From Monilinia fructicola (taxonomy: Eukaryota; Ascomycota; Leotiomycetes; Helotiales; Sclerotiniaceae), in assembly GCA_008692225.1 (NCBI GenBank), contig VICG01000006.1:501501-565500 (forward strand): a stretch of 64,000 nucleotides of DNA. The letters are read 5' to 3'. The notes beneath the pieces were generated by a model, which saw only the letters and a list, made by a program, of their open reading frames with translations, did no database searches and had not been told where the DNA came from. Both the position numbers and the translations under genes were made by a program. Positions 36,381 to 60,116 of this stretch are shown piece by piece (within the stretch, counting starts at the first letter, position 1; every line of letters starts with the position of its first letter).

Positions 36381-37640
<1,260 letters not shown>

Positions 37641-38983: not shown

Positions 38984-39997
38984 TCATGACTTTGTTGCCA
39001 GAACAAGTACAATTGGCCATTTGAAAGCCCTTATCTCCCGCTCACCACCCATCGCATATTGTAACTTCTTCAAAAGCCCTTGAATTTCATCATTCCCATC
39101 CACTAAACTCTTGACATTGGGAAAACTATAATCTATAAAGTCCTTAACACCTCTCATATCCCACCTTCGTTCCCACATCGAGGGGTCTTCAACTTCAATC
39201 ACTTCCTCCTCCGCCGTTACTTTCGAAATTGGTTCAAGTTCGAAATCACATGCCGCCGGCGTGAAGAAGGTATTTTGCGTACTCTTATTATTCCACTTTC
39301 GTCTCACTACCTTCTCCCATTCGCCAGGCTTCTCGAAAAAGTCCAAATAATCCAACCAACTGATGCAACCCTCAGCTGCCTTCTTCCAACCTTCAGTTCT
39401 TTTAGAACCATGCCCATTGATCAGCTTGGAAAAGATACAATCCAAGATACGATCGAAAATAGGCTGGCAGGTTGAAATATACTCCGGTTCAGAGAAATGC
39501 GGGCGTGCATAAAACCATATTGCGAGTGTACCTCCTGGTTTGAGGATGGTAGAGAACGCGGATAGTGCGGCGGAACCGTCCATCAACGGAAGACATTCAG
39601 CTGCAGCTACCAAGTCTGCACTTTGCGGTTCATGATGAGCTGCTAATTCTTCCGCCATGCAAATTACAAAAGTGAATTTATCACTATCTTTGGAATTCGG
39701 GGTAGGAACCAGGAATCGATGTGCCGCATTAAGAGATGAGGCATTATTGTCGCTTGCTACGACATGTGCAAAACGGGTTGCCAATTCAGAAGCGCCGATC
39801 CCGGATCCGCATCCAACGTCGTGGGCTATTTCGAAAGACGTTGATGCCTTGAAAGAGTGGTAGTCATAGATTATGTTCAAGAAGTTATCTTCTGCATAGT
39901 TGGGTCTGGTAGCTTCGTAGGCGCGCCAGTAGTCATCTTCGGACTGGTTAATGGATGCTACCTTCCAAAAATTCACGGTGTCTTCTTCAGGGTGCAT
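38984..39997 (-). CDS. Class I SAM-dependent methyltransferase, possible RiPP-cluster member
   Basis: Transfers a methyl group from S-adenosylmethionine to an unknown acceptor. 337 residues from the ATG at 39997; the frame stays open upstream but without an ATG, and an upstream exon is possible because AATGCACCC follows a TTTCAG acceptor. The fold is shown by DYWRAYEATRPNY, motif I HDVGCGSGIGASEL (about residues 59-72), and LKPGGTLAIWFYARP (post-motif beta strand). This pattern is that of the fungal trans-aconitate/Crg1-like methyltransferase group. It is the left-most plausible member of the group with UstYa-like genes and the peptide precursor. N-methylation is a known step in ustiloxin synthesis, but the link here is by position only. 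Confidence 0.85.
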   Translation of the reverse strand: MHPEEDTVNFWKVASINQSEDDYWRAYEATRPNYAEDNFLNIIYDYHSFKASTSFEIAHDVGCGSGIGASELATRFAHVVASDNNASSLNAAHRFLVPTPNSKDSDKFTFVICMAEELAAHHEPQSADLVAAAECLPLMDGSAALSAFSTILKPGGTLAIWFYARPHFSEPEYISTCQPIFDRILDCIFSKLINGHGSKRTEGWKKAAEGCISWLDYLDFFEKPGEWEKVVRRKWNNKSTQNTFFTPAACDFELEPISKVTAEEEVIEVEDPSMWERRWDMRGVKDFIDYSFPNVKSLVDGNDEIQGLLKKLQYAMGGEREIRAFKWPIVLVLATKS

Positions 39998-40803
39998 TCT
40001 GAAATAAGATAGAACTGATGAAAATACTGGCGAGAAACTTGTCGAGCACGTACTGACAACCACTTCCTTTTCAAAATATTGAAACAAAATTCAGTAGTTC
40101 AATCTTCTTCATCCGAAAATATCTGCTGGTTCTATCCAATTTACGTCGTAAGTCAAGAGCTAAACGAGAGAAGAATGTGACAGTATGCTTGCTGACGAGA
40201 GCGTCCTCGCCCCTCTCTCCACGTCAGATTCTAATTTCCCACTTAAACACTGTCATAAAGGCTTATCTCAAGCCACATTAATTCTCCGTATGAAAAGATC
40301 GAAAATGTTGTATTTGTTGACCTCAAGATACGTGGTATGACGAAAGCCAATTATTCGCCAATCACGATCACCAGTGGATGAGACTCCTGCACTGATATGA
40401 TGAATTGACAACTTCTGGGAAGAATATGTGGGACCGACAATTATCGTGCTCTCATACTGCATTGAGGTGGCACAGCTGCAAAGCTAAAGGTTCGAAGGCA
40501 TTTGGAGTACATTTATTCTATATACAGTATTCGTTTAGTATAATAGCGTGCTGAGTCATCCGCGTAACCGCCAGATACTATGCTTGCCTATCATCGAGCT
40601 AATTTAGAACTGAGAGTATATGTAGCCAAGCAAATATTAGCACTGAAATCAACCGATAAAAGTCCCCGTTGCATTAGTCACGGGCACTCCATATATGCCC
40701 TCACTTTAGTCATCTGGAAAATATTTTGTCTCAATTTCTTTTAGTAGATTTCTCGCAAAGTTTTGATGAACAATTGCAAGATATCGCTTCCATATTCTTC
40801 AAC
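39998..40803. promoter_or_regulatory. Divergent spacer, methyltransferase / UstYa-like 1
   Basis: 806 bp between two divergent start codons. Contains ATATATGCCC (40690-40699), about 110 bp before the UstYa-like ATG, as a weak TATA candidate. No gene seen. Confidence 0.4.
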
Positions 40804-41795
40804 ATGGCAGGCCTCTCAAAATACTCCAAATTAGAATCTAGATCGCTCGCAGAGGCTGTAGACGTTGAGGTTTTGCCTCGCTCGTCGGACAACAGTGAAT
40901 TTTACTACCCAAACCAATCAAAGAAGCGACCATTCCGCCATATTGTCGCGTATACATTGCTGACCCTTTCTAATATCGCTTTCTTCGGTCTGTGGGCCAG
41001 AGAGCATTATATTTTATCTCACAGCGTCTTTGATACAGATTGCATTCGACCAAAGCTGAGTTTTTGTGCGGCCTAACACTGCAAGTGTGTTGTTAGATAA
41101 CCTACTGACAAGCTTTTTATCATAGCTGCTCCTGCTTATGATGGTGCAATCTCATATGAGCGTCGTCGTCTATTTCGTCCCCTCATTGATAATCCCTTTA
41201 CTGGCCCACCACGCCCTGAGTTGGACGCAGCATATGCCAAAGATCTTGGAGCCTATGACCACCAGAATCACAAATGAAGAATACGCCCACGCTAATCTTG
41301 GGACAACAACGCTTGCTCTTGGGGATGGCTCTGGCTACGTTGCGGAGATGTCAGTATTTCATGAATTGCACTGTATCAAGCGCATACGAAGGCATTTGAA
41401 TTTGGATTATTACTACCCCGGTTTGACGGGCGATGAACTTGAACGTGAAAATGTGCACAGTGGTGAGTTTTGCTTTTGATATGATCATGTTATCCAAACT
41501 GACATCATCAGATCACTGCCTGGAGTATTGGCGTGAAGCAGCTATGTGCCGAGGTGATGCTACCATGGCAACTATGTTCTGGCGTGATGCTGTCCCGACT
41601 TCAAGGGCCTGGTCAGACCACCACGAATGTATCAATTGGGATGCATTTCATAAATGGGCCCGAAGCCGGTCACTCAATATGACAGACCCAAGCATTTTGG
41701 TGAGTTGTTTCAAGAAATCTGATGCCAAATTTAGGGCCACGAGCTGTAATGGTGTTCTAATTCGAAACTTTATAGAATCAAACCGGCCGATTTGA
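40804..41795 (+). pseudogene. UstYa-family (DUF3328) oxidase-like gene 1, with a frame break
   Basis: UstYa-family proteins form cyclic bonds in fungal RiPPs such as ustiloxin. The N-terminus has a basic patch and one membrane helix (residues about 46-65). A weak intron at 41066-41125 (donor GTGCGG) leads to SAPAYDGAISYERRRLF, the normal family continuation. The frame then runs to a stop at 41277-41279. The family sequence (ITNEEYAHANLGT) continues in the frame one base away, pointing to one extra base near the GG at 41248-41249. The first family motif, HELHC, lies at 41360-41374. The second, HSDHC, is split by an intron (41463-41511) with a good GTGAGT donor. The 3' end is unsure. Either a pseudogene or an assembly error; no restored product is implied. 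Confidence 0.75.
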
Positions 41796-42426
41796 CTGGC
41801 TGAGTACACCAGATGGCCGTACGGTATTGAGATCAGATCCTACAGTTGAGGTTTTCCACCCCTGAAATGCAGAGTGGCAGCAAAGAGCTCACGGATCCAA
41901 TTGCTTTGGACTATTCATGCTGAATCTTTGGTTCTTGGAATTTGGAATATTACATATACTTTCTTACCAGTTTTGCCTCATTTGAGGTTGTAGAGAGAAA
42001 TTTTCTCGATTCAAAACTTTTTACCCTGAATATTATTCAAATTATTGTCCGAAGTGGCTCATTGCGGATCCTTGGCAAGTAGGCTACTGTTTCAATAGAT
42101 TTTCAACTAGGCTCTGAATTAATTTTCCATGCTTTCCGGCAAAAATCTTTTAGCTATAATCTAGATACTGAAGTGTTGAGAATCATGCGTTATTACCATG
42201 ATACATGGTACTGAACACAGAAGTCATTGAATATAAAACGCGCATATAGTCGCGTGTCTTTCAATGTTACCTATGAATGGGCCAGCACGATCAAGCTGCT
42301 AGTTTGGTTGCAAAGGTGATCTAGATCAGAAAAAACTTATATTGGATCGACTAGAAAGATTCTTCAAGTATTTAAAATAAGATAATTTTGATGGTTTTAG
42401 CTGAAGTGGCAAGATCTCAACTGGTT
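41796..42426. other. Convergent spacer between the two UstYa-like genes
   Basis: 631 bp, AT-rich, holding both 3' ends. No gene seen. Confidence 0.4.
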
Positions 42427-43278
42427 CTACGAGTGACCTTGATGGCCAGTAAGGCCAGTAACAATCCCCTTATCGGTACTGTTTGCCCAACGTGTTGCAT
42501 ATTCCATGACTGCTCCATAATCTCGACATATCTTCTCTTGTCCCCATCCGTTAGTTGTATGATTCACGGGATCAACAACTTCAAGATTCGTATCGGCTGC
42601 ACACATTATCCCTCTTCGTACGTAGTCAAAACAATGTCGAACATGACCAGTGTCAATCTTGGCTCCATAGAGGTTCGGCTTCTCTGAATCAGCGGTGCCT
42701 GCTCGGATAATATCTAGTTCTTCTTGAGCAGCGTAATAAGCAGTCAGAATGGTGTGCTGGGCCGACGTCAGTTTATGTTGAGCGAAAGAAGGAGTCACCC
42801 ACAAAACAATGCAGTTGGTGAAATACGGCGATGTTTGAGATGAAAGGTGCTATATCAGGCTGGTGAATGAAGCCACGGCCCGGTGGTACGTATGAGTCCC
42901 ACGCAGCTTCAGACTCAGCTGTTGGTGCTTGACTGAATGTCAAGTTATGCTGCCAGATCTGCGTGATATTGCCATCGGGAGCTGCGAAATGAACATTGAT
43001 TAGCGGTAACGAATATGTTAGACTTTGAAAGTTGTGAATGAGTACTAACGTAAAAGACCCCCATATGTAGGTTTAGATGCAACTGAAGTCACTGAATTGT
43101 GTCCGAGGAAAAAGCCTAGAGCACTGGCCAGGAAAAATGTGAGCAGGATCTGGATACATGATCTTTTCCAGTCATGTTCTAGTGATCGGAATGTTGTGGA
43201 GTTATCTGATTCAATATCATAGCTTTCGTTGCTGTCAGTAGTACGTGGGAGGAAAGGTTTTGCTTCCGAGGCCATCAT
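42427..43278 (-). CDS. UstYa-family (DUF3328) oxidase-like protein 2, intact
   Basis: Exons 43278-43050, 42981-42803 and 42756-42427 give 245 residues with closed phases. The start is the first of two adjacent ATGs (43278); the open frame extends upstream only through a GTG. One membrane helix lies at residues 41-59 (CIQILLTFFLASALGFFLG), as in the family, placing the C-terminal domain in the secretory lumen. Both signature HxxHC motifs are complete: HQLHC at 131-135 and HVRHC at 174-178. The family sequence around them (ILTAYYAAQ, FDYVRRGIMCAADTNLE) is clear. It stands divergently, 675 bp from the repeat precursor gene. Such enzymes oxidatively cyclise side chains, often aromatic ones; Trp is the natural candidate here. 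Confidence 0.88.
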
Positions 43279-43953
43279 GAGGATAGGCGAATAACTTTGC
43301 AAAATAACTTTATCAGAACTATTGTTCACCTTCCTTGATGTCTGGACGAAGCATTCCCTCGTTCAAACAAAAGAAACAACAGAGAAGGATCCAAAGTTTT
43401 GTTCCTTGGGCCTTTAGAAGTGGGAAACGCGGAGACCCTGAAGATTTCACAGCGAGAGTGACAGGAGGTGATGGCACATAAACATCAATTAGAAGTCCAG
43501 AGATGCTAACGCATACGGAAACAACGATGTTTTTGTGCCGAGTTACAGTATCAGGGCGCGGAGGTATTTCTGTTTGTTATACATTGTGCTTTTACAGTAC
43601 ATAAGGGCTTACAACCGAGCCTGTACAGTACATAAGGGCTTACAGCCGCGCCTAACAGGGGGGTTCATACCCTGACCATTGCAGGGTGGTACGTGGGGCT
43701 GGAAAAAAGTACCGATCTATCAGAACTATTAGTCAAACTACGAATGCACCATTTAGCGTGCATATGAAAACATAACTAAAGCAGCAACTCATCTATGATT
43801 TCTATTGAGGGGGAGGAGCGACTTCCTAGTAAGATATAAATAACACTACTTTGTGGTCCAACTCCAAGTTAACAATCCGACCGCAATCACTTTATTAATC
43901 CACCCTCAGGACATCCCGAAACCACATCACGTGTATCGCTCAACTACTACATC
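43279..43953. promoter_or_regulatory. Divergent promoter, UstYa-like 2 / RiPP precursor
   Basis: 675 bp between two divergent ATGs. It holds a 31-bp-spaced tandem duplication (43593-43644) and a TATA box (TATAAATA, 43835-43842) about 112 bp before the precursor ATG. Confidence 0.6.
43593..43644 (+). repeat. Tandem 21-bp promoter repeat
   Basis: TACAGTACATAAGGGCTTACA occurs twice, at 43593-43613 and 43624-43644, with similar linker bases (ACCGAGCC / GCCGCGCC) after each copy. Placement between the divergent cluster genes suggests a duplicated regulator site; this is inference. Confidence 0.8.
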
Positions 43954-44264
43954 ATGAAACTCTCAACTTATCTCTTCCCTTCGCTAGTCTTCGTGGGCGT
44001 AAGCTTCGCACTGCCTATCGCAAATGGTAAGTGAAGCTGCCTTCCTCCTCTCAATTTTCAATTTAACAGTTGCGCTTAGCTGCCCCCGACGCTGTCGACG
44101 TCGTCAAAAAAACCTGGCCTGCCACGCGTAGTGCAGATGCTGACGATGTTGTCAAGAATGCTTGGTCGGCTAAACGCGACGCGGATGCTGATGATGTTGT
44201 CAAAAATGCATGGTCAGCGAAGCGTGATGCCGACGATGTTGTCAAGAATGCTTGGTCTGCCTAA
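43954..44264 (+). CDS. Secreted repeat peptide precursor (candidate RiPP / Kex2-processed)
   Basis: Exon 1 is 43954-44026 and exon 2 is 44080-44264 (53-bp intron, GTAAGT donor), giving 85 residues. An N-terminal signal peptide (MKLSTYLFPSLVFVGVSFA) is followed by four tandem repeats of 13-16 residues. The first is divergent (AVDVVKKTWPATR). Two are near-identical and end in a Kex2 site (DADDVVKNAWSAKR). The last ends with the stop codon exactly where KR would begin (DADDVVKNAWSA). This is the build of fungal dikaritin precursors (UstA-like) and other Kex2-processed peptides. The neighbouring UstYa-like genes favour a RiPP. Each repeat has a single Trp, the likely modified residue. The mature product and activity are unknown. 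Confidence 0.88.
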
Positions 44265-44642
44265 TTTTGGAGAAACTATCCCAAGGGTGTCTTTGATATG
44301 GAGGGCGATAGATCAGAGTGAAGAAATCCGGAGGGTTGGGGGTATTATTGATATGTCCAATTCCATAGTAAGGAAGAAATGAGACATCTACTTCTGAAGC
44401 AATGGCTTGTTTGTGTCTGTTGATTACGGGTGAATCATTGCGAACCTTTTTAGTTATCATTGAAACTTCAAGCAAGTACTTAAGTAGATCACGCAAAAAC
44501 AAACTGTAAACTGCAGGTCTGGTCTGATTTAAGAAGAATGCGTTCGTTAAAGAATTTTGAATTTTCGAAAGATGCTTTTGTAAGATAAGAGGTATTTATT
44601 TTCTAAATATAATTTTGTCTGCAGGTCTACGTATCTATTGTA
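44265..44642. other. Spacer between precursor and inverted-repeat element
   Basis: 378 bp; includes the precursor 3' UTR. No gene seen. Confidence 0.4.
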
Positions 44643-45494
44643 AGTCGCCTACCCTACTTCTCGCCACCCCCCCCCTATTTGGCCAACATTTCACACCAAA
44701 AAACAGCTATTTTAACGTATTTATAACTCTTACGAAAAAATAAATATGTATATTTTAAATTTTAACTATAGCTTTTCTATATATAATTATTAATAGATTT
44801 TGAAAATCTTAAATTTTTGCGATTTTTTTATAAAGAGTAATAAAAGAATTATAGAAAAATCAAAAATTTTGGGTTTTAGAATTTGTATAGAAATCACATA
44901 CAAAATTGAAAACTATAAAAAAAATATTTATAACTTTTAAACAAAAATAATCAAAAATAATCTATAATTTTTATAAAATCTATTAATCAATATATAGTAA
45001 ATAAACTATTTAAAATATATATAATAATTTAAAATTATTGAGTAAATCGAAATTAGAAAATTTTTTATCTAAAATTTTATCGTTAAAATCTAAAAATCTA
45101 CATTAAACATTTATTACACATAATGATATACTATTAAAATAATAAATTCAATTGAAACTTAACTTTAAGTTTCTTTAAAATTTTTAGATTATTTTTAGCT
45201 ATTTTTATTAAAGAAATATAACTTTTTTTTGAAAGATTTTGATTTTGTATAGGATTTACATACAAATCGAAAATTGGAATTTTGATTTTTTTATAATCTT
45301 TTATAACTCTTCATTAAAAAATCGCAAAAATTTAAAATTTTCAGAATTTATTAATAATTATATATAAAAGCTTTAATTAAAATTTAAAATATATATATTT
45401 ATTTTTCGTAAAGTTATAAATACGTTAAAATAGCTGTTTTTGGTGTGAAATGTTGGCCAAATGGGGGGGGTGGCGAGAAGTAGGGTAGGCGACT
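44643..45494. mobile_element. MITE-like fold-back element, 852 bp, with TA target duplication
   Basis: The left end AGTCGCCTACCCTACTTCTC is matched by its reverse complement at the right end, and the match continues through TTGGCCAACATTTCACACCA and on for roughly 250 bp per arm. TA flanks both sides (44641-44642 and 45495-45496), the target duplication of Tc1/mariner-type transposons. The interior is AT-rich with no transposase frame, so the element is non-autonomous. It sits between the precursor and the GMC gene. Confidence 0.9.
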
Positions 45495-45830
45495 TAATCA
45501 AGTTGAAAATCATTTTGGGTACAAAACTAATATATAATTAAAGCATCAACTCAAGAATTTTAAACATAAATATTATAGATTGGTAAAAAAATAATAATTT
45601 GATCAAATGCCATTTTATTTACAATTAACCGATCAATGGCCAACATTACAGTCAATAATCACTACTCTGAGACTTTTTGCTTCCGTTTCCCCCTTCATCG
45701 ATTTATGGCATTTTTCCTTACCCACTTCTCGAGAAACGAACTTGGAGCTTTGCATGACAAATTTTTGATTCTCTTCGCGATTTTAACATAATACGGAACC
45801 TAATGAACAAATAAATTTGCACTCTCTAAA
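45495..45830. other. Spacer, no gene seen
   Basis: AT-rich 336 bp between the fold-back element and the GMC stop codon. Confidence 0.4.
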
Positions 45831-47643
45831 CTACTTTCCCTCAGCAATAATCTCTGATGCCAGATCCGCAATTGCGTACAATGAAGCTTGAGGGTGTCCT
45901 CCCAGTGGTGCCGGGAATATGCTTGCATCCACGACTCTCAGTCCCTGAACGCCCTTTACGCGTAAGTCGGTATCCAGCACTTTTCCGATTGCACAAGTTC
46001 CAGCGATATGGAAATGGGGGTTTCCAACGATACGAATCCGGTCTTCGATATCTTTATTGCTACTTTCCACAGTCAACGGTTCTAGCCCTGGACCAGGACC
46101 TACCTCGGTTTCTACAAAACTCTTTACCAACTTCAGTGCCAGTAAGGCATTGCAGTAGCCGACGAGCTCCATGGACTAATACCGCACGGTCTGTTGCCGT
46201 AGAAAAGTAATTCCCTGCAATTACTGGAGGGATATTGGGTGAAGCAGACGCTAATTCAAGTGAGCCTCGAGATGTTGGCAGCGTGAGCATGATCGAGGTG
46301 CCAATGAAACTACCATCAACAGGTACGCCAGGTGCAAGCGGGTTGTACAATATCATGGTTTCGACATGGCTCCGACCGATTTCACTCAGTCTCCCCACGT
46401 CTGACAGGTCACCGTCATCAGCAAGAGCCTCTTTGAGCGTCTCGGCAGGCAAAGCTTCATTGACAACCCAATCGACAGGCATTCCCTTGAAAAAAGCTGG
46501 GTCCGAAAGATCGGGATGTCCAATAGAGAGTCCACGCTCCGGGTTGCGCAGCTTGAAGATTTGAAAGAATGCAAAGTGCTCAAAGAGGTTTTGACCAACA
46601 GCTGGCAAGTCAAAAACAACTGGGATAGAATGACGAGTAAGCACTGCAGCTGGTCCTACTCCAGAAAGTTGGAGCAACTGTGGTGAGCCTACGGCACCGG
46701 CAGAGATTATGATTTCTTTACGAGCTTTTATTTGACGACCATCTCCAAGCACGACAGCTGTGGCTCGTGGCTTTTGGTCTGGAGTCTGTTCGAACAATAT
46801 GCGATGTACAATGGTTTCAGTAACGATACGAACACCAGATAGGTCGAAGGCCAAGTGAGACGGCTGGCGAACACCGTCGTCGAAATTTTCCAGAAATTCG
46901 GATAAGCCTTCAAGTTTGCCAGTGGTTTGTTGGAATTTTGTTCTACCCCAAGCTCGGCCCACTGAAGATCTGGGTGTCAGTAAATTTCCATTGTTTATTT
47001 ATCTTGAAGCAAATGTGTGACAAATGGCTAATTCCGAAAGTGGAGATGGTAGGAAGAACGAAAACTGGACACGCAGCATACATATCTTGGGATGTATGAT
47101 CGATGATTGAATGGTACTCACAGCTTTCCGAATAGGCTCACGCAGCGGATATCTTCTTTTCGGATCACTTGCACTGATGCTAGTCACCTTCATGGGACCA
47201 TCGGAGCCGTAATGGTCTGGATTTGCTGCTGCATCATGGACTGACTCGCTCCTCTGGAAATATGGCAAAAGGCCTTCGTAGCTCCAGCGATCATCACCAA
47301 GAATGCGAGCCCAAGCGTCGTAATCCTTTTTGTCACCGCGAGCCCACCCGCCATAATTTAGCACGCTTCCACCGCCTAGCGTTTTGCCTGCAACAAGTGT
47401 GATAACACGGTCGCCGAGAGCAGGAATAGGCGTTGTTTTATAAGCCCAGTCGAGTTCAGATCCAGGAAGAGCGAACCCTCCTCCTAGACTCGTCGAGTTC
47501 GGGTTTGATGTAGGATCTACACCAGCTTCGAGAATAAGGATGGAGGAAGACGGACCTAGACGCTCTGCGAGGCGACTCGCAAGCGCACAGCCTGTAAGAC
47601 CACCACCGACAATAATGTAATCGAATTCTGTAGGGACTTCCAT
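45831..47643 (-). pseudogene. GMC-family FAD oxidoreductase (choline dehydrogenase-like), two frame breaks
   Basis: GMC flavoproteins oxidise alcohols or amino compounds. Exon 1 (47643-47122) encodes the Rossmann FAD motif FDYIIVGGGLTGCALASRLA and the GGGSVLNYGGWARG loop. A 160-bp intron (47121-46962) leads to WAELGVEQN. The frame then shifts near 46924-46925, where one base appears missing; a long middle section follows in the second frame (IISAGAVGSPQLLQLSGVGP). At 46116-46119 a run of four A (plus strand) appears one too long, and the C-terminal part (HFHIAGTCAIGKV, GGHPQASLYAIAD) continues in a third frame to 45831. All family blocks survive in order. Either a recent pseudogene or assembly indels. 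Position makes it a candidate tailoring enzyme of the RiPP cluster. Confidence 0.82.
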
Positions 47644-48204
47644 AGTTTAAAATTTAAGACAGGATACGAAATAGTACTGGGTAGAGTAAAGGGCAAGAGC
47701 ATGCAAAGGTATTTATATAAACTGTGCCTCATTGAGAGCCTTAGACTTTAACGTATGCAGCCAGTAAGCAGCGGGGTCTCTTTCCTCCCTGTGCCACTGT
47801 GCTGCATAATATTGGAACTGCATGCCGGCCCTATACACTGGCTATAAACTGAGCATGGTGAGATGTCCTCTGTCTTTTAGGGCATGGTATTTTCACGCAA
47901 ACGACACAGTTCGACTCTATTGAGGACTAGATCAATGTCAATTCTAATGGAAACTTTGGGTTGACCTGTGCTTGTTTGAATCCGGTACAGATATATGTAA
48001 CATTTATTAGCTATCGGATTATTAATTCATTCCGGTCAATATGATATATAATCAGATTCCAAGGTTATGCATGTATCTGCCCTTTTGGGCCTAATCTTCT
48101 GCGCTTAAATTAGGTGACATAGGCTAGGCGACTTGGATGTATGATTGGCAGAATCAACGAAGTGGATTATCTTCCCTTCAAGGTTGTTCTCTGTATTCCC
48201 GATA
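47644..48204. other. Intergenic, GMC promoter side
   Basis: 561 bp upstream of the GMC gene. TTTATATAAA (about 47710-47719) is a TATA candidate for it. No gene seen. Confidence 0.4.
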
Positions 48205-48859: not shown

Positions 48860-50450
48860 TTATGACATATCCACGGATCGCTCTACCGCAATACCTTTGA
48901 GAGGTGCAATATGGCTGTGTAATGGACCTCCGGCATTGATCCTTGTATTTACCGCGGGGCTGTGATAATGTTGCAAGTCGTCCAGGTTATTCAAGTCTGC
49001 CTGCGATTCTGTCTCCATAGAACTTTCTCCGCGTCTACCGCTTTTGGCTGAACCATAGATATATTTTGAATTTTTGTTTCGATTGTACGAGCTTAGCTCG
49101 ACAGAGCCGGAGTTGGATTGTGACTTTTTCGTCAGGTGTAGCCAAATAGGACGGTAAGTCGGTAGACAGGCGCTTAGAATGGCGCTGGAGAGCTCAATAT
49201 TTGCCCAGAAGAAGACGGGTGATGTATAGACTGAGAGGAAAGTGATCAGTAAGCGGTACGTCTCTTGTCATAAACTGAAATGTATTCTAAAGGGGATAAC
49301 TTACAAGTTTCGTCGTTGTAATGTAGCAGAAAAATTGAGTCTACATGGAAATATGCTAACATACGCGTAACGCTAAAGGCACAGACGCTAAACAGGAAGG
49401 TCAGTTTTCATGTCTATGATGAAAGAATTGGAGATCGATAAAGTGCAGAACCTACGTCGCTCCTAGAAAAAACATCACCAACACCCCCATCTTCTGCTTT
49501 GGACGAAGTTTCAATTGCAAGACCATGGGTATCGGAAGAAGAAGGATTAAAATGTCAACAATCATGTCTGAGATGCTCATAGCATACCACATAGCCACTG
49601 AATTAATACATTTGTCTATGAGCACCGGGCTGTCATCAGTTGCCAATAACTCGTTTTAGTAAATAGATGGGAAGACTTTCACCCATATTTGTGGTGTGCG
49701 AGTTGCAAAAAATGAAAGATCAGAGACCAGAATGGAGAATTGATCGGAATTGAAATAGATTGTACTTACGGCCATAAAACGGCTCAACGAATGGCGTGAT
49801 GGGATAGCATGTGAACAAATTCGCAAAGAAGAACGATATCGTCCATGCAGATACGATTACCAACATAACTCTAGCCGTGAGTACGAAGGCTGCTCCAACG
49901 AAAATATTCATATAGAATACCAGAATAGAGGATTTTATCAACCCAAGACCGATGGTAGTGAGCATATTAATAGCAAACTTACACTTTTAATCAAATTGTT
50001 AGCGTGCTGAGCTTGTAGGTTCGAGATCGTGCAACGGTGCATACCTTTTCATAAACAACAAATCTTGGATCGTCAAGAATCGGTTGCCCATTAGCGTCAT
50101 CTGCTTCATGTTGTCCAAGATTTCCTCTATAGGAAGCTATGAGTTGCATTAGCTCAACCATATGATTTCAGATGCGGAACCAGGAGACACTCACCAGCAA
50201 GTTGAATAGAGCAACAAGCAATCGCAAATACCTTTGAATTAATACAGTTAGATATAAATCAAATCATTTCCTTATTCCCAGATGTATTCACCAGTGCAAC
50301 CAAGATGATATAGTCATCGGCTTGGAAACTACGACGTCCAATATACTTTGCCCAGAGCCTTAGAGCTACTGCGACTATCGGTAGTACAAGAAAGCCCAGC
50401 CCTAGACCTATCATCTGGGTCTTCGAATAATCATCTGCCATATAAACCAT
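48860..50450 (-). CDS. Seven-helix integral membrane protein (fungal rhodopsin-like/PTH11-related family)
   Basis: Seven exons: 50450-50292, 50231-50195, 50136-50045, 49983-49770, 49615-49456, 49387-49305 and 49230-48860; phases close to 371 residues. Hydrophobic segments include MIGLGLGFLVLPIVAVALRL, TTIGLGLIKSSILVFYMNIF, VMLVIVSAWTISFFFANLF, MIVDILILLLPIPMVLQL and MGVLVMFFLGATVCAFSV, then SPVFFWANIELSSAILSACL. The order, with the LRLWAKYIGRRSFQADDYII loop after helix 1 and LLPIPMVLQLKLRPKQKMGV, is that of the fungal integral membrane family often annotated as rhodopsin domain or satratoxin SC1-like. These are common beside secondary-metabolite genes; ligand unknown. The tail is Ser-rich and cytosolic. 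Not tied to the RiPP group except by position. Confidence 0.82.
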
Positions 50451-52637
50451 TTTGGGCAACTTTGAACCGATAGCTGATCAATAAGACAAGACTTGATTGC
50501 AATGATGCTCGTGAATTTCCCCCGGGGTTTGAAGCAAGTTATCGAAATAAAAGAAGACCGAACGGGCGAACTTAATATTATAGTAATCGAACATGAACAT
50601 AATGAACTATCTGGGCATTGCTACATAGTAAAATAAAGCAACAACATAACTCCAGGAGTTGCATTACTAGAATAGTCCATCATGTCACATTTCTCACTGT
50701 CATATTTGTCACCGCGACCGTTATCACCACCATCTAATCGTAAATCCAACAAGCAAATCCAATCCTGCAACAATTCGGGGCTGGAAATAGACAGAGTCTA
50801 CGAGCTCCGTTCCATTCTGATTTTCATCGTCTCTCATACGGCACGGCGTGTAAGCAAATCTCCGAACAACCCCGCACAGTATTCTTCCACATTTCAGTAA
50901 GATTTACACTTCTGTTGCAGAACTTCTGCAGTGATATCCCACTGAGCTCCACACATAAGCGGTTTTGCACAGGCTTCATGGCTGCATTATACACATTCCA
51001 AAAACGTGAACATACCCCTCCACACTAGTCCTATCAACTTTAAAGAATCCGCAATGAATTGTGGAATCACAGCTTTGCAAATTTGTTTGCAAACTATTCT
51101 TCTAAAGCCGTTCCCGCAGGTTTCCGTGATTGCCGTACAAATAAGATCTGCTGCATTCCCTTTCGAGAGATTGAACCGTGATACTCGTGTCAGAGTAGTC
51201 CGATCACGACTTTGCTGTCGTTTCTCATCGTATCTGAAGGCCTTGAACCGGGTTTCAATATGATGTAAGAAAATAGTCAATGCAACCAATGCAGATATAT
51301 ATCTCACCGATAATTATGCAATTGACACATATCAGACTATAGATTCACCGTCTTAGAAGACTGATTGTGCCGCAGCCACCATCTATTTTGGAAAATCCTT
51401 ATGTATATCTGAAGAGAGATTACCTTTTTGGCAGGTGAGAAGGATTGGGGTTGATTTTCAGTTTAGATATACTTTATCTACCGAAAGGCCAGGAAACCTT
51501 GCCCAGAGTTGTATAGAAGATGGGTGGCCGGTAGTGGCTTGTGGGGCTGCTACGATTAAATTGCGGATAACGGGCGGGTTGAATTTATATATAGAATTTA
51601 TAGAATTTATAGAATTCGTGTGATTTTTGTAATTTATAATTATAAAGTTGATATAAAAGGCATGAATGATCTGTAAACTATTAAACTGCGTTTAATGGTT
51701 AATCCGCAGTTAAACTATGATTTATTCTTATAGAGCAGTTTTTCTTAAAATCTTAATAATTTATCTATGAAATAGTTGTTTTTTAATAATTTAGTGTTAC
51801 AGTGTACCTAGGTATTATCAATCTCATGGTCACATGATTATACTAGCCTAATTCGCCTAGCTTGTCTTAGATTAGCTTAGCTTGGCTTAAGTAAGCGGGC
51901 CGATAAATTGGGATCCGCTCACTTTCACAATCCTCATCTTAATTTAATTCAATCAAAACAGTCACATTTAGCTATCAAAAGACTGAATCGAATCACCCTA
52001 CCGGTACGGTTGTTAGTTATCTTCACGCAGCCTAGCTATTTTTTATTACAATGATATCTAAAGAGTTTTTATATTTCAAAATTTATGTGGATGTTGATTT
52101 TAGCCTTTTGATTTTGAAAAGAGAGAGTATAATCAAGAACTACTAGAAATTTCGACAAGATAAAGTCGAATATTCTGGGATATCCTTCCATGAATATCCT
52201 TAATATAAATCGAGTTCTGAAGTAGAAGCTGAATATGAAAAACGCTGTTAGCAGAACGTGATCGTGGTCCGCATTCCAGGGGGGATGTATCATCATGGCG
52301 TTAACAAGAGCGTTGTTTGGATGAACCAATACGACCGGGATCTTTGGCAAGACTTGTCTTTGTATAGATTTTCATGCCGAGTTACCCTGTTACAGTGTCT
52401 TTGAAGGATTGTCGTCACAGTTTTGGCTGCGATAATGTCAGATTCACTTGGATACTTTGTACATGAAGTGGTCTGATACATTAGGGATGCTTGAATCCTT
52501 CAGTCATGTCCGCTACCACATTGTCTTGCACTAGCCTCCTTGAAGTTGTCAACGCATGGAATTGAAAATGCAGCCTATGACAGCCAGTTACAAAATTCGG
52601 ATCGAAATGTGTATCTTCGTTTTACCGTATTGCCTGC
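50451..52637. other. Intergenic, no gene seen
   Basis: About 2.2 kb. It holds a short GAATTTATA tandem near 51588-51618 and the first copy of a 170-bp dispersed repeat (51795-51966). Open frames such as 50987-51307 show no family resemblance. Confidence 0.4.
51795..51966 (+). repeat. Dispersed repeat copy 1 (LTR-like start TGTTACAGTG)
   Basis: About 170 bp shared in direct orientation with 54731-54896, including CACATGATTATACTAGCCTA and AAATTGGGATCCGCTCACTT. It starts with TG and carries a TATA-like TAAATTGG and a promoter-like downstream part, as in a retrotransposon LTR. Its far end was not found, so this is provisional. Confidence 0.7.
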
Positions 52638-58556: not shown

Positions 58557-60116
58557 ATGTGGTCGTTCATGTCTGCCGGACTTTTATGTCTTCTCGGCGT
58601 CACTTTTCCGTCCAGTGTCAATGCAAGTCGTCTACGACGTGTAGAGAACGATACAAGTATTTCGCTTTCATTATCCTCAGCGGCGACTATATCGCATAAC
58701 GTATCAACTGTACCGCGGTGGAGCGAATTCAAGGCCCCTAGCCCAGGTACTATCGTCAACGTGGCGACCGAGCAGGATGTAGCCGTTACGGTATGTAGCA
58801 CACTCTTGTTGATAGAGGAGTCTCGGTTAAAGCTATGCTCACATGAATCCAGGTGAAATACTGTATCAAAAATAATATTCCCTTTCTTGCACAGAATGGA
58901 GGACATGGTTGGAGTAGCACGCTTGACCTATACTCGAATGGAATTCTGATCAATTTGGCTGGTCTCAACAAAGTTACATTCAACGATGAAAGTACCGAGG
59001 TTACCTTGCAAGGAGGTGCTTTGGTTGAAAATGTGATCAATGCAGCCTATGAGAACAATGCTCAAGTGTTGACCGGCAACTGCAATTGCGTAGGCGCATT
59101 GGGGGCTGGTCTTGGTGGAGGCTATGGTAATCTGCTGGGTCTTCATGGTTTCAGTGTTGACAACATGCTCTCTTTGAATGTCGTCCTAGCCAACGGGGAT
59201 TATGTTACCGTAACTCCCACTGACAAGGACCTCTGGTGGGCTCTTCGTGGTGCTGGCCCGAATTTTGGCATTGTGACCTCTGCTGTGATGAAAGCATATC
59301 CGGTACCTCAAGCTAACAGTACCGCTTGGACTGGGGCTTTATTTTTCACAGAAGATAAAATTGAGGCTCTCGTTCAAGCTATTGAGAATCTGGACCTCAC
59401 GGGTGGAATGAATATCTTCATGTACTTTCTTACTACCGGTCCTCCATCATACACCCCGACTGTTCTCATAACACCGTTTTACTACGGCTCCGAAGCTGAT
59501 GGCAAAGCTGCATTTCAATCAATCTATGATATCGAGCCATATCTAGATAAGACGGCCGAAACAATATACACTGAATGGAATGCAGGTGCCGCAAACTTTT
59601 GTGAAGATGGTGGACGAAAGCCCAGCTATTCTGCTGGTTTTATGAAGATGGTTCCTTCTGTTTGGCGGGAAATCTGGAACGAGTTTATCACGTTCCTCAA
59701 GCAACCTGGTACTTCGTCCACTACCATTCTTTTGGAAGTATATTCCCTACAGTATGCTCAATCAATTGATGCATCTACTGCTTCATTCAGCAACCGATAT
59801 ATTCGTTTTAATGCTGCAGTTATACCGTGGTATAACGACGCGAGTCTGGATCCTGTCGCCGAGACTTTTGGATCCTCTATCCGAGACCTGTGGCGCTCAG
59901 TCGATCACCTTCCTGGAAATCGAACGTAGGTTGGTCTGTTATCTATACCAAAATCATATGCTGACAACATAATCGTGCAGTTATGTTAACTTTGCCCACG
60001 GTGATGAAACGAACGCAAATGTTTATTCTCCAGAAAATGTACAGAGGTTACGTAAGATCAAGCAATGTTATGATCCCGACAATGTTTTCAGTCATTGGTT
60101 CAACATTAAACCATGA
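58557..60116 (+). CDS. Secreted FAD-linked oxidase, berberine-bridge-enzyme type
   Basis: BBE-like enzymes oxidise sugars, alcohols or alkaloid/peptide substrates with a covalent FAD. Exons 58557-58790, 58853-59925 and 59981-60116 give 480 residues. A signal peptide is present (MWSFMSAGLLCLLGVTFPSS). The FAD_binding_4 domain shows NGGHGWSS with His96 and LTGNCNCVGALGAGLGGGYG with Cys155, the two residues expected to hold FAD by a double covalent link. GAGPNFGIVTS follows. The C-terminal BBE block ends in KQCYDPDNVFSHWFNIKP, where YDPxNxF is the family sign. N-glycosylation sites (NDTS, NVST) are near the N-terminus. It could serve the nearby cluster or act alone. Confidence 0.92.

What the first reader, a model, noticed from the sequence alone, without database searches (positions are those of the whole stretch)
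38984..47643. Candidate undescribed fungal RiPP cluster built around a Trp-containing repeat peptide
A short secreted precursor with Kex2-spaced repeats lies among two UstYa-family (DUF3328) genes, a SAM methyltransferase and a GMC flavoprotein. UstYa-family proteins beside a repeat precursor are the mark of dikaritin-type RiPPs (ustiloxin, phomopsin, asperipin, victorin-like). Known dikaritin cores I am aware of are mostly Tyr- or Phe-based; here every repeat has one Trp and no Tyr or Phe, so a Trp-linked product would be new chemistry. The link between genes is by position and family, not shown.
Basis: partly seen in the sequence, partly recalled or inferred. Interest (0 to 1): 0.92.

Follow-up and report, generated by a model that had tools for sequence, protein, structure and literature searches.

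The report
Tryptophan-repeat fungal peptide gene cluster
A brown-rot fungus carries a small gene cluster that probably turns a short secreted peptide, built of tryptophan-bearing repeats, into a chemically modified product; it looks like a new member of a known fungal peptide class whose best-studied products use tyrosine or phenylalanine instead.

Summary
The window lies in a Monilinia fructicola-type genome. At 43954-44264 (+) a two-exon gene encodes an 85-residue precursor: a signal-like head, then four repeats, three with the same unit DADDVVKNAWSA, each with one Trp and no Tyr or Phe. It is single-copy. Differences among the three identical units are all synonymous. One relative was returned (P0001). 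The gene is divergent from a UstYa-family gene with both HxxHC motifs; a second UstYa gene and a trans-aconitate-methyltransferase-like gene follow. UstYa and methyltransferase relatives share contigs in six other assemblies, so that pairing looks conserved. The GMC flavoprotein is not supported as a member. The second UstYa gene and the GMC gene show frame breaks; similar breaks in chaperone genes suggest assembly indels. In the same genome three further precursors near UstYa genes have Trp as only aromatic residue in their repeats (4 of 6 found). A survey already reports W in 20.5% of repeats near such genes. I read this as a dikaritin-like RiPP cluster; a Trp cross-link is plausible but unshown.

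The parts
43954..44264 (+). RiPP precursor gene: exon 1 43954-44026 (signal-like head), intron 44027-44079, exon 2 44080-44264 (four repeats; 85 aa in all)
   Evidence: single copy in the genome; relative P0001 aligns by eye without a gap across the inferred splice point
42427..43275 (-). UstYa-family gene 2 (HQLHC and HVRHC motifs), three exons by reading, divergent from the precursor
   Evidence: PF11807 E 2.8e-12; 162 relatives at E <= 0.001, best 96% to M. fructicola EYC84_000126, 77% in Clarireedia jacksonii; alignment of 18 relatives A1
40804..41865 (+). UstYa-family gene 1 (HELHC and, across an intron, HSDHC by reading); reading frame broken near 41255
   Evidence: PF11807 profile 55-93 in one frame (20.3 bits, below the 25-bit cut-off) and 94-166 then 166-220 in other frames, with no room for an intron at the 93/94 step; 3' end approximate, read from the sequence
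38984..39997 (-). Class I SAM methyltransferase, trans-aconitate-methyltransferase-like, 337 aa, open frame
   Evidence: PF08241 E 4.9e-11; closest solved relative 3g5t trans-aconitate 3-methyltransferase, E 6.8e-10; 99 relatives at E <= 1e-10
43594..43644 (+). Two exact copies of a 20-bp motif (ACAGTACATAAGGGCTTACA) in the divergent promoter; candidate regulator sites
   Evidence: 2 matches in the window, 0 expected from shuffles; 40 of 42 loci lack the 14-bp core, the other two (L009, L012) cover this same place
45831..47646 (-). GMC oxidoreductase gene with an apparent frame break; cluster membership doubtful
   Evidence: GMC_oxred_C profile 1-49 and 50-139 in two frames about 12 nt apart; a second break near 46915 suspected by eye only, the piece tested there matched no family
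44641..45496 (.). Repeated palindromic (fold-back) element separating the precursor from the GMC gene; not part of the pathway
   Evidence: 38 other nearly full-length copies at 87-91% and two partial ones, 40 candidates scored of 361

Best explanation
This is a dikaritin-like RiPP cluster. The precursor enters the secretory pathway; Kex2 cuts after KR, Kex1 removes the basic residues, and Ste13 strips X-Ala dipeptides (SA-DA, DA-DA or DA; the spacers differ by exactly one such dipeptide). Three repeats then give one decapeptide, DDVVKNAWSA, and the first gives VDVVKKTWPA. The copper-dependent UstYa pair oxidises it in the secretory lumen, most likely at the Trp, as a side-chain cross-link or as hydroxylation or desaturation, and the methyltransferase adds a methyl group, possibly as a carboxyl ester like its trans-aconitate relative. 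Shown here: the precursor, the enzyme families and motifs, and the UstYa-methyltransferase pairing. Inferred: processing order, site and kind of modification, product and function.
For: Repeat architecture beyond chance with synonymous-only drift in the three like units. Homologous precursor with the same core and mostly X-Ala spacers. Divergent gene pair with a duplicated 20-bp promoter motif. UstYa 2 carries both HxxHC motifs; in an alignment of 18 relatives the motif residues are invariant or at least 90% conserved, with P0054 lacking the first motif and P0003 lacking one His of the second, both at gene-model gaps. UstYa and methyltransferase relatives share the exact contig length in 6 other assemblies (6,194; 22,582; 32,436; 44,641; 629,383; 2,195,704 nt) among 120 listed of 162 and 99 rows, where about 0.05 coincidences above 3 kb are expected. 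Repeat precursors lie in 6 of 14 UstYa regions examined in this genome, against a published 7878 in 1461 strains (my division, about 5 per genome). [quoted passage not shown]
Against: No product, transcript or activity was seen. The precursor search returned one protein among 834 candidates, a 63-aa protein on a 956-nt contig, and none from the species with UstYa 2 orthologues (M. fructigena, M. laxa, C. jacksonii). Those three species give no methyltransferase row under their own names, and Ciborinia camelliae has a methyltransferase row but no listed UstYa 2 row. UstYa 1 is frame-broken in this assembly. No tyrosinase or peptidase domain was found among the 23 window pieces given to Pfam; the rest of the window was not scanned. 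In the survey W is not enriched near DUF3328 genes (20.5% with, 24.5% without).
Confidence: 0.68

Rival explanations
1. The repeats give an unmodified linear signalling peptide, processed like alpha-factor, and the UstYa genes act on something else.
For: X-Ala spacers are Ste13 substrates as in alpha-pheromones, and many repeat precursors yield linear peptides (PMC9769878, passages). W is about as frequent in repeats without DUF3328 neighbours as with them (PMC7329392, passages).
Against: No Cys-containing pheromone core; in the survey 98.6% of 216 putative fungal pheromones lack a DUF3328 neighbour (PMC7329392, passages); a divergent UstYa gene sits next door; the UstYa-methyltransferase pairing recurs.
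Confidence: 0.17
2. The cluster is decaying: frame breaks in UstYa 1 and the GMC gene are real and no product is made.
For: Profile steps cross frames with no room for introns.
Against: Overlapping matches in different frames also occur in chaperonin (C3, C12, C13) and Hsp70 (C4) genes of the same assembly, and a paper notes a lower BUSCO score than expected for the hybrid assembly of strain Mfrc123 (PMC8070815, passages); the precursor, UstYa 2 and the methyltransferase are open.
Confidence: 0.12
3. The GMC flavoprotein is a full member and oxidises the peptide or a side chain (not exclusive of the main reading).
For: Position only; that GMC genes occur in fungal clusters is recalled.
Against: About 1.6 kb and a transposable-type element lie between it and the precursor; GMC_oxred_C gives 33 matches over the genome, two of them here; no conservation test was possible.
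Confidence: 0.15

Closest known systems
Ustiloxin, phomopsin and asperipin clusters (dikaritins, ust-RiPS)
   Same: Signal peptide, Kex2-spaced core repeats, UstYa-family oxidases; an N-methyltransferase in the ustiloxin pathway (PMC7329392 and PMC12048977, passages)
   Different: Their cross-links go through Tyr; here Trp is the only aromatic residue of the repeats; no tyrosinase among the pieces scanned; product unknown
Victorin and epichloecyclins
   Same: Kex2-type multi-core precursors from plant-associated fungi (PMC9233826, passages)
   Different: Victorin is closed through Phe and Leu, epichloecyclins through Tyr and Ile
Trp-containing Kex2-processed repeat proteins near DUF3328 genes (type P-3 and others)
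   Same: Trp in repeats and DUF3328 genes within 15 genes (PMC7329392, passages)
   Different: P-3 (7 members, 4 with DUF3328) is listed from Fonsecaea, Cladophialophora and three basidiomycete genera, W accompanied by P; whether the NAWSA family is in the paper's supplementary tables could not be checked
Plant BURP-domain cyclases (burpitides, lyciumin type)
   Same: Copper enzymes with four planar histidines; Trp cross-links
   Different: A different protein family; a functional analogy only

Membership tests
Dikaritin / ust-RiPS | N-terminal signal peptide | tested here: met
   Hydropathy only: best 11-mer mean 2.33; four other precursors 1.52 to 2.26; no signal predictor was run
Dikaritin / ust-RiPS | Tandem cores separated by Kex2 sites | tested here: met
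   Four repeats; two KR and one TR separators
Dikaritin / ust-RiPS | UstYa-family gene beside the precursor with HxxHC motifs | tested here: met
   Two genes within 3.2 kb; one frame-broken in this assembly
Dikaritin / ust-RiPS | Tyr or Phe in the core (usual, not definitional) | tested here: not met
   Only Trp in the four repeats and in the repeats of P0001
Dikaritin / ust-RiPS | Oxidatively cross-linked product | not testable with these tools
   Needs LC-MS
Dikaritin / ust-RiPS | Tyrosinase (ustiloxin and phomopsin only) | tested here: inconclusive
   None among 23 window pieces given to Pfam; not all ORFs were scanned
Alpha-pheromone precursor | Leotiomycete-type pheromone core with two Cys | tested here: not met
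   No Cys in the precursor; feature from a PMC6339444 passage

The most novel reading that the evidence does not exclude
UstYa-family di-copper enzymes in this fungus work on tryptophan: the decapeptide DDVVKNAWSA is closed through its indole, then methylated, and the genome holds four separate Trp-only UstYa-linked precursors (NAWSA, AELW, LIEWAD, PWDE), a fungal counterpart of the plant Trp-linked burpitides.
Probability: 0.33. Interest if true: 0.72.

Novelty: new variant of a known kind. Interest (0 to 1): 0.52.

Why it matters
UstYa (DUF3328) enzymes were only recently shown to be copper-dependent (PMC12435403, passages), and the cross-linked fungal products in the passages I read go through Tyr or Phe, apart from the unrelated amatoxins with their Trp-Cys bridge. 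Several Trp-only precursors near UstYa genes in one sequenced plant pathogen give concrete, mass-predictable substrates with which to ask whether the family also modifies Trp. If yes, it would widen the known chemistry of fungal ribosomal peptides; if no, it would show that Trp repeat peptides stay linear despite UstYa neighbours.

Tried and rejected
GMC as a core member: rejected for now (element between, common family, no conservation test). Alpha-pheromone: rejected (no Cys). Real pseudogenisation: held as a rival, since overlapping matches in different frames in conserved chaperone genes point to assembly indels; I judged these from coordinates and profile positions, not by reading the DNA. 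The 1,353-nt contig shared by P0051 and P0203 was dropped from the pairing count: too short for both proteins (235 and 341 aa). AlphaFold model of the C. jacksonii UstYa 2 orthologue: mean pLDDT 56, too poor to use beyond noting that the two motif regions fall on predicted helices 126-153 and 171-191; no fold search was made. UstYa alignment against solved structures: no match at E <= 1. NCBIfam: no match for UstYa 2's orthologue, only sub-cut-off matches for the methyltransferase and a GMC piece. A search for the letters NAWSA gave 41 papers; the ten listed were unrelated. Background for the precursor scan is small: nine loci, 34 kb, where the only true hit was this locus itself (L012 overlaps it) and one other was an Arg run. 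The criterion was loosened between (precursors in 4 regions including the window; 6), so it was not fixed beforehand; a still looser scan of the five empty 19.8-kb regions and three small ones added none.

Full report
Where it is. The second UstYa gene is 96% identical to M. fructicola EYC84_000126. The host genome has 20 contigs and 44.03 Mb, and the contig length printed for that protein and for the methyltransferase, 2,602,481, fits between this genome's contigs C5 (2,656,653) and C7 (2,592,823). A paper mentions a 20-contig M. fructicola genome by De Miccolis Angelini et al. and a hybrid Illumina and PacBio assembly of strain Mfrc123 with a lower BUSCO score than expected, both under the same reference (PMC8070815, passages). 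I take the window to be that assembly or a near copy; this is inference.

The precursor. Exons 43954-44026 and 44080-44264 give MKLSTYLFPSLVFVGVSFALPIANA followed by APDAVDVVKKTWPATR, SADADDVVKNAWSAKR, DADADDVVKNAWSAKR and DADDVVKNAWSA. The spacers before DDVV are whole X-Ala dipeptides (SA-DA, DA-DA, DA), so Kex2, Kex1 and Ste13 trimming would give one decapeptide from three repeats; this parse is mine, with the Ste13 rule (XP/XA removal) from PMC9769878 (passages). The three identical 12-residue units differ only at synonymous sites, by 5, 3 and 6 nucleotides pairwise. The gene is single-copy. The only protein returned from a search of about 5.8 billion, P0001, reads ...SFAAPLADAALDADDAVRNAWSAKRGTVADADDVVRNAWSAKKGKRDADADDVVRNAWSA; by eye it aligns to the window's protein without a gap across the inferred splice point. 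That search reaches only relatives sharing exact 5-residue words.

The neighbours. UstYa 2 (42427-43275, minus) is divergent from the precursor across about 680 bp that hold two exact copies of a 20-bp motif. Its annotated model P0002 lacks the first HxxHC, apparently because a longer intron was chosen; P0003 and P0004 have it. UstYa 1 (about 40804-41865, plus) has HELHC and HSDHC by reading, but the Pfam profile crosses frames between positions 93 and 94 at about 41255. The methyltransferase (38984-39997, minus) is open; its nearest solved relative is trans-aconitate 3-methyltransferase, and its only other match in the genome is 33% identical over part. The GMC gene crosses frames inside GMC_oxred_C and lies behind a repeated palindromic element.

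Are the frame breaks real? Chaperonin matches at C12 (1397088-1397705 and 1397701-1398132), C13 (1146342-1146959 and 1145989-1146348) and C3 (614888-615556 and 615553-615777), and Hsp70 matches at C4 (2239668-2240603, 2239400-2239681 and 2238789-2239427), overlap by 4 to 28 nt while continuing along the profile; by coordinate arithmetic the neighbours lie in different frames, and in the Hsp70 case the first and third pieces share a frame. An intron cannot explain that. I read these as assembly indels, so the breaks in UstYa 1 and the GMC gene are weak evidence of decay.

Conservation of the module. Of 120 listed UstYa 2 relatives (of 162) and 99 methyltransferase relatives, eight pairs share an exact contig length: the own genome, six others, and one dropped as a coincidence (1,353 nt). 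Jittered lengths give 0.05 expected above 3 kb. Four of the six contigs are 6 to 45 kb; two (629 kb, Aspergillus homomorphus; 2.2 Mb) are long, so there 'same contig' need not mean adjacent. No tool here could fetch those contigs, so whether they hold a precursor is unknown. Against: M. fructigena, M. laxa and C. jacksonii appear in the UstYa list and not by name in the methyltransferase list (rows stand for 90% clusters, so a close Monilinia copy could hide in the own-genome row P0122, which has 3 members).

The same genome as control. PF11807 gave 30 matches. I examined the window and 13 other regions: ten of 19.8 kb and three of 9.8-9.9 kb. Six of 14 hold a repeat precursor: this one; C7:1565499-1565849 (...TAELW, AAELW or IAELW before KK, KR, RK or the stop, between two UstYa genes, with a P450 fragment and a Fung_rhodopsin gene nearby); C5:119084-119302 (PLIEWADTKK, PLLEWADTKK, PLIEWADTR; P450 and UstYa nearby); C1:2437794-2438210 (APWDEKRWDEKR); C3:3521268-3521800 (TAIVYPAEKR, in two frames); C14:222090-222731 (LLYGYGQEKR). 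Four of six have Trp and no Tyr or Phe in the repeats. The three other Trp precursors also show, by reading, a signal-like head followed by a short intron (the C5 head is the least hydrophobic).

What is in print. Umemura 2020 (PMC7329392, passages): 7878 repeat precursors in 1461 strains, 22% with DUF3328 genes nearby; W in 20.5% of their repeats against 24.5% without DUF3328; Y in 65.6% against 38.2%. So Trp repeats beside these genes are catalogued but not enriched. Its supplementary tables could not be opened, so the NAWSA family may be in them; its main text names Monilinia once, in the genus list of the pheromone type G-2. DUF3328 is a di-copper family (PMC12435403, passages). Searches for UstYa, DUF3328, dikaritin or ust-RiPS together with Trp, tryptophan or indole showed no fungal Trp-linked dikaritin in the titles and abstract starts listed (4 of 4, 7 of 8, 25 of 170, 25 of 60 and 15 of 5,458 papers), in an open-licence library only; subscription papers are missing. 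Monilinia with RiPP (12 listed) showed nothing on this cluster by title or abstract start, and the main text of the M. fructicola genome paper does not contain 'RiPP'.

Verdict. A credible UstYa-linked Trp-repeat RiPP cluster, not found described in those searches; chemistry unproven.

Noticed in passing
window 44641-45496: Palindromic (fold-back) repeat element of about 0.86 kb with 38 other nearly full-length copies at 87-91% and two partial ones (40 candidates scored of 361); it matches its own reverse complement at 79%.
   Followed up: partly
L024/L025 (G000:C7:1565499-1565849): Repeat precursor with Trp-only repeats (..TAELW) between two UstYa genes.
   Followed up: partly
L038 (G000:C5:119084-119302): Repeat precursor with three LIEWAD-type repeats, Trp only, with P450 and UstYa genes 4 to 7 kb away.
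   Followed up: partly
L036 (G000:C1:2437794-2438210): Repeat precursor APWDEKRWDEKR, Trp only, about 2.3 kb from a UstYa match.
   Followed up: partly
G000:C3, C12, C13 chaperonin and C4 Hsp70 genes: Overlapping matches in different frames suggest residual indels in this assembly.
   Followed up: partly
window 36950-37145: Long TTA/TAA microsatellite in an AT-rich stretch (about 20% GC).
   Followed up: no
window 49452-50477: Fung_rhodopsin match in a fragmented membrane-protein frame set next to the GMC gene; one also lies between the C7 UstYa genes.
   Followed up: no
window 58847-59929: FAD_binding_4 oxidase gene; relation to the cluster untested.
   Followed up: no
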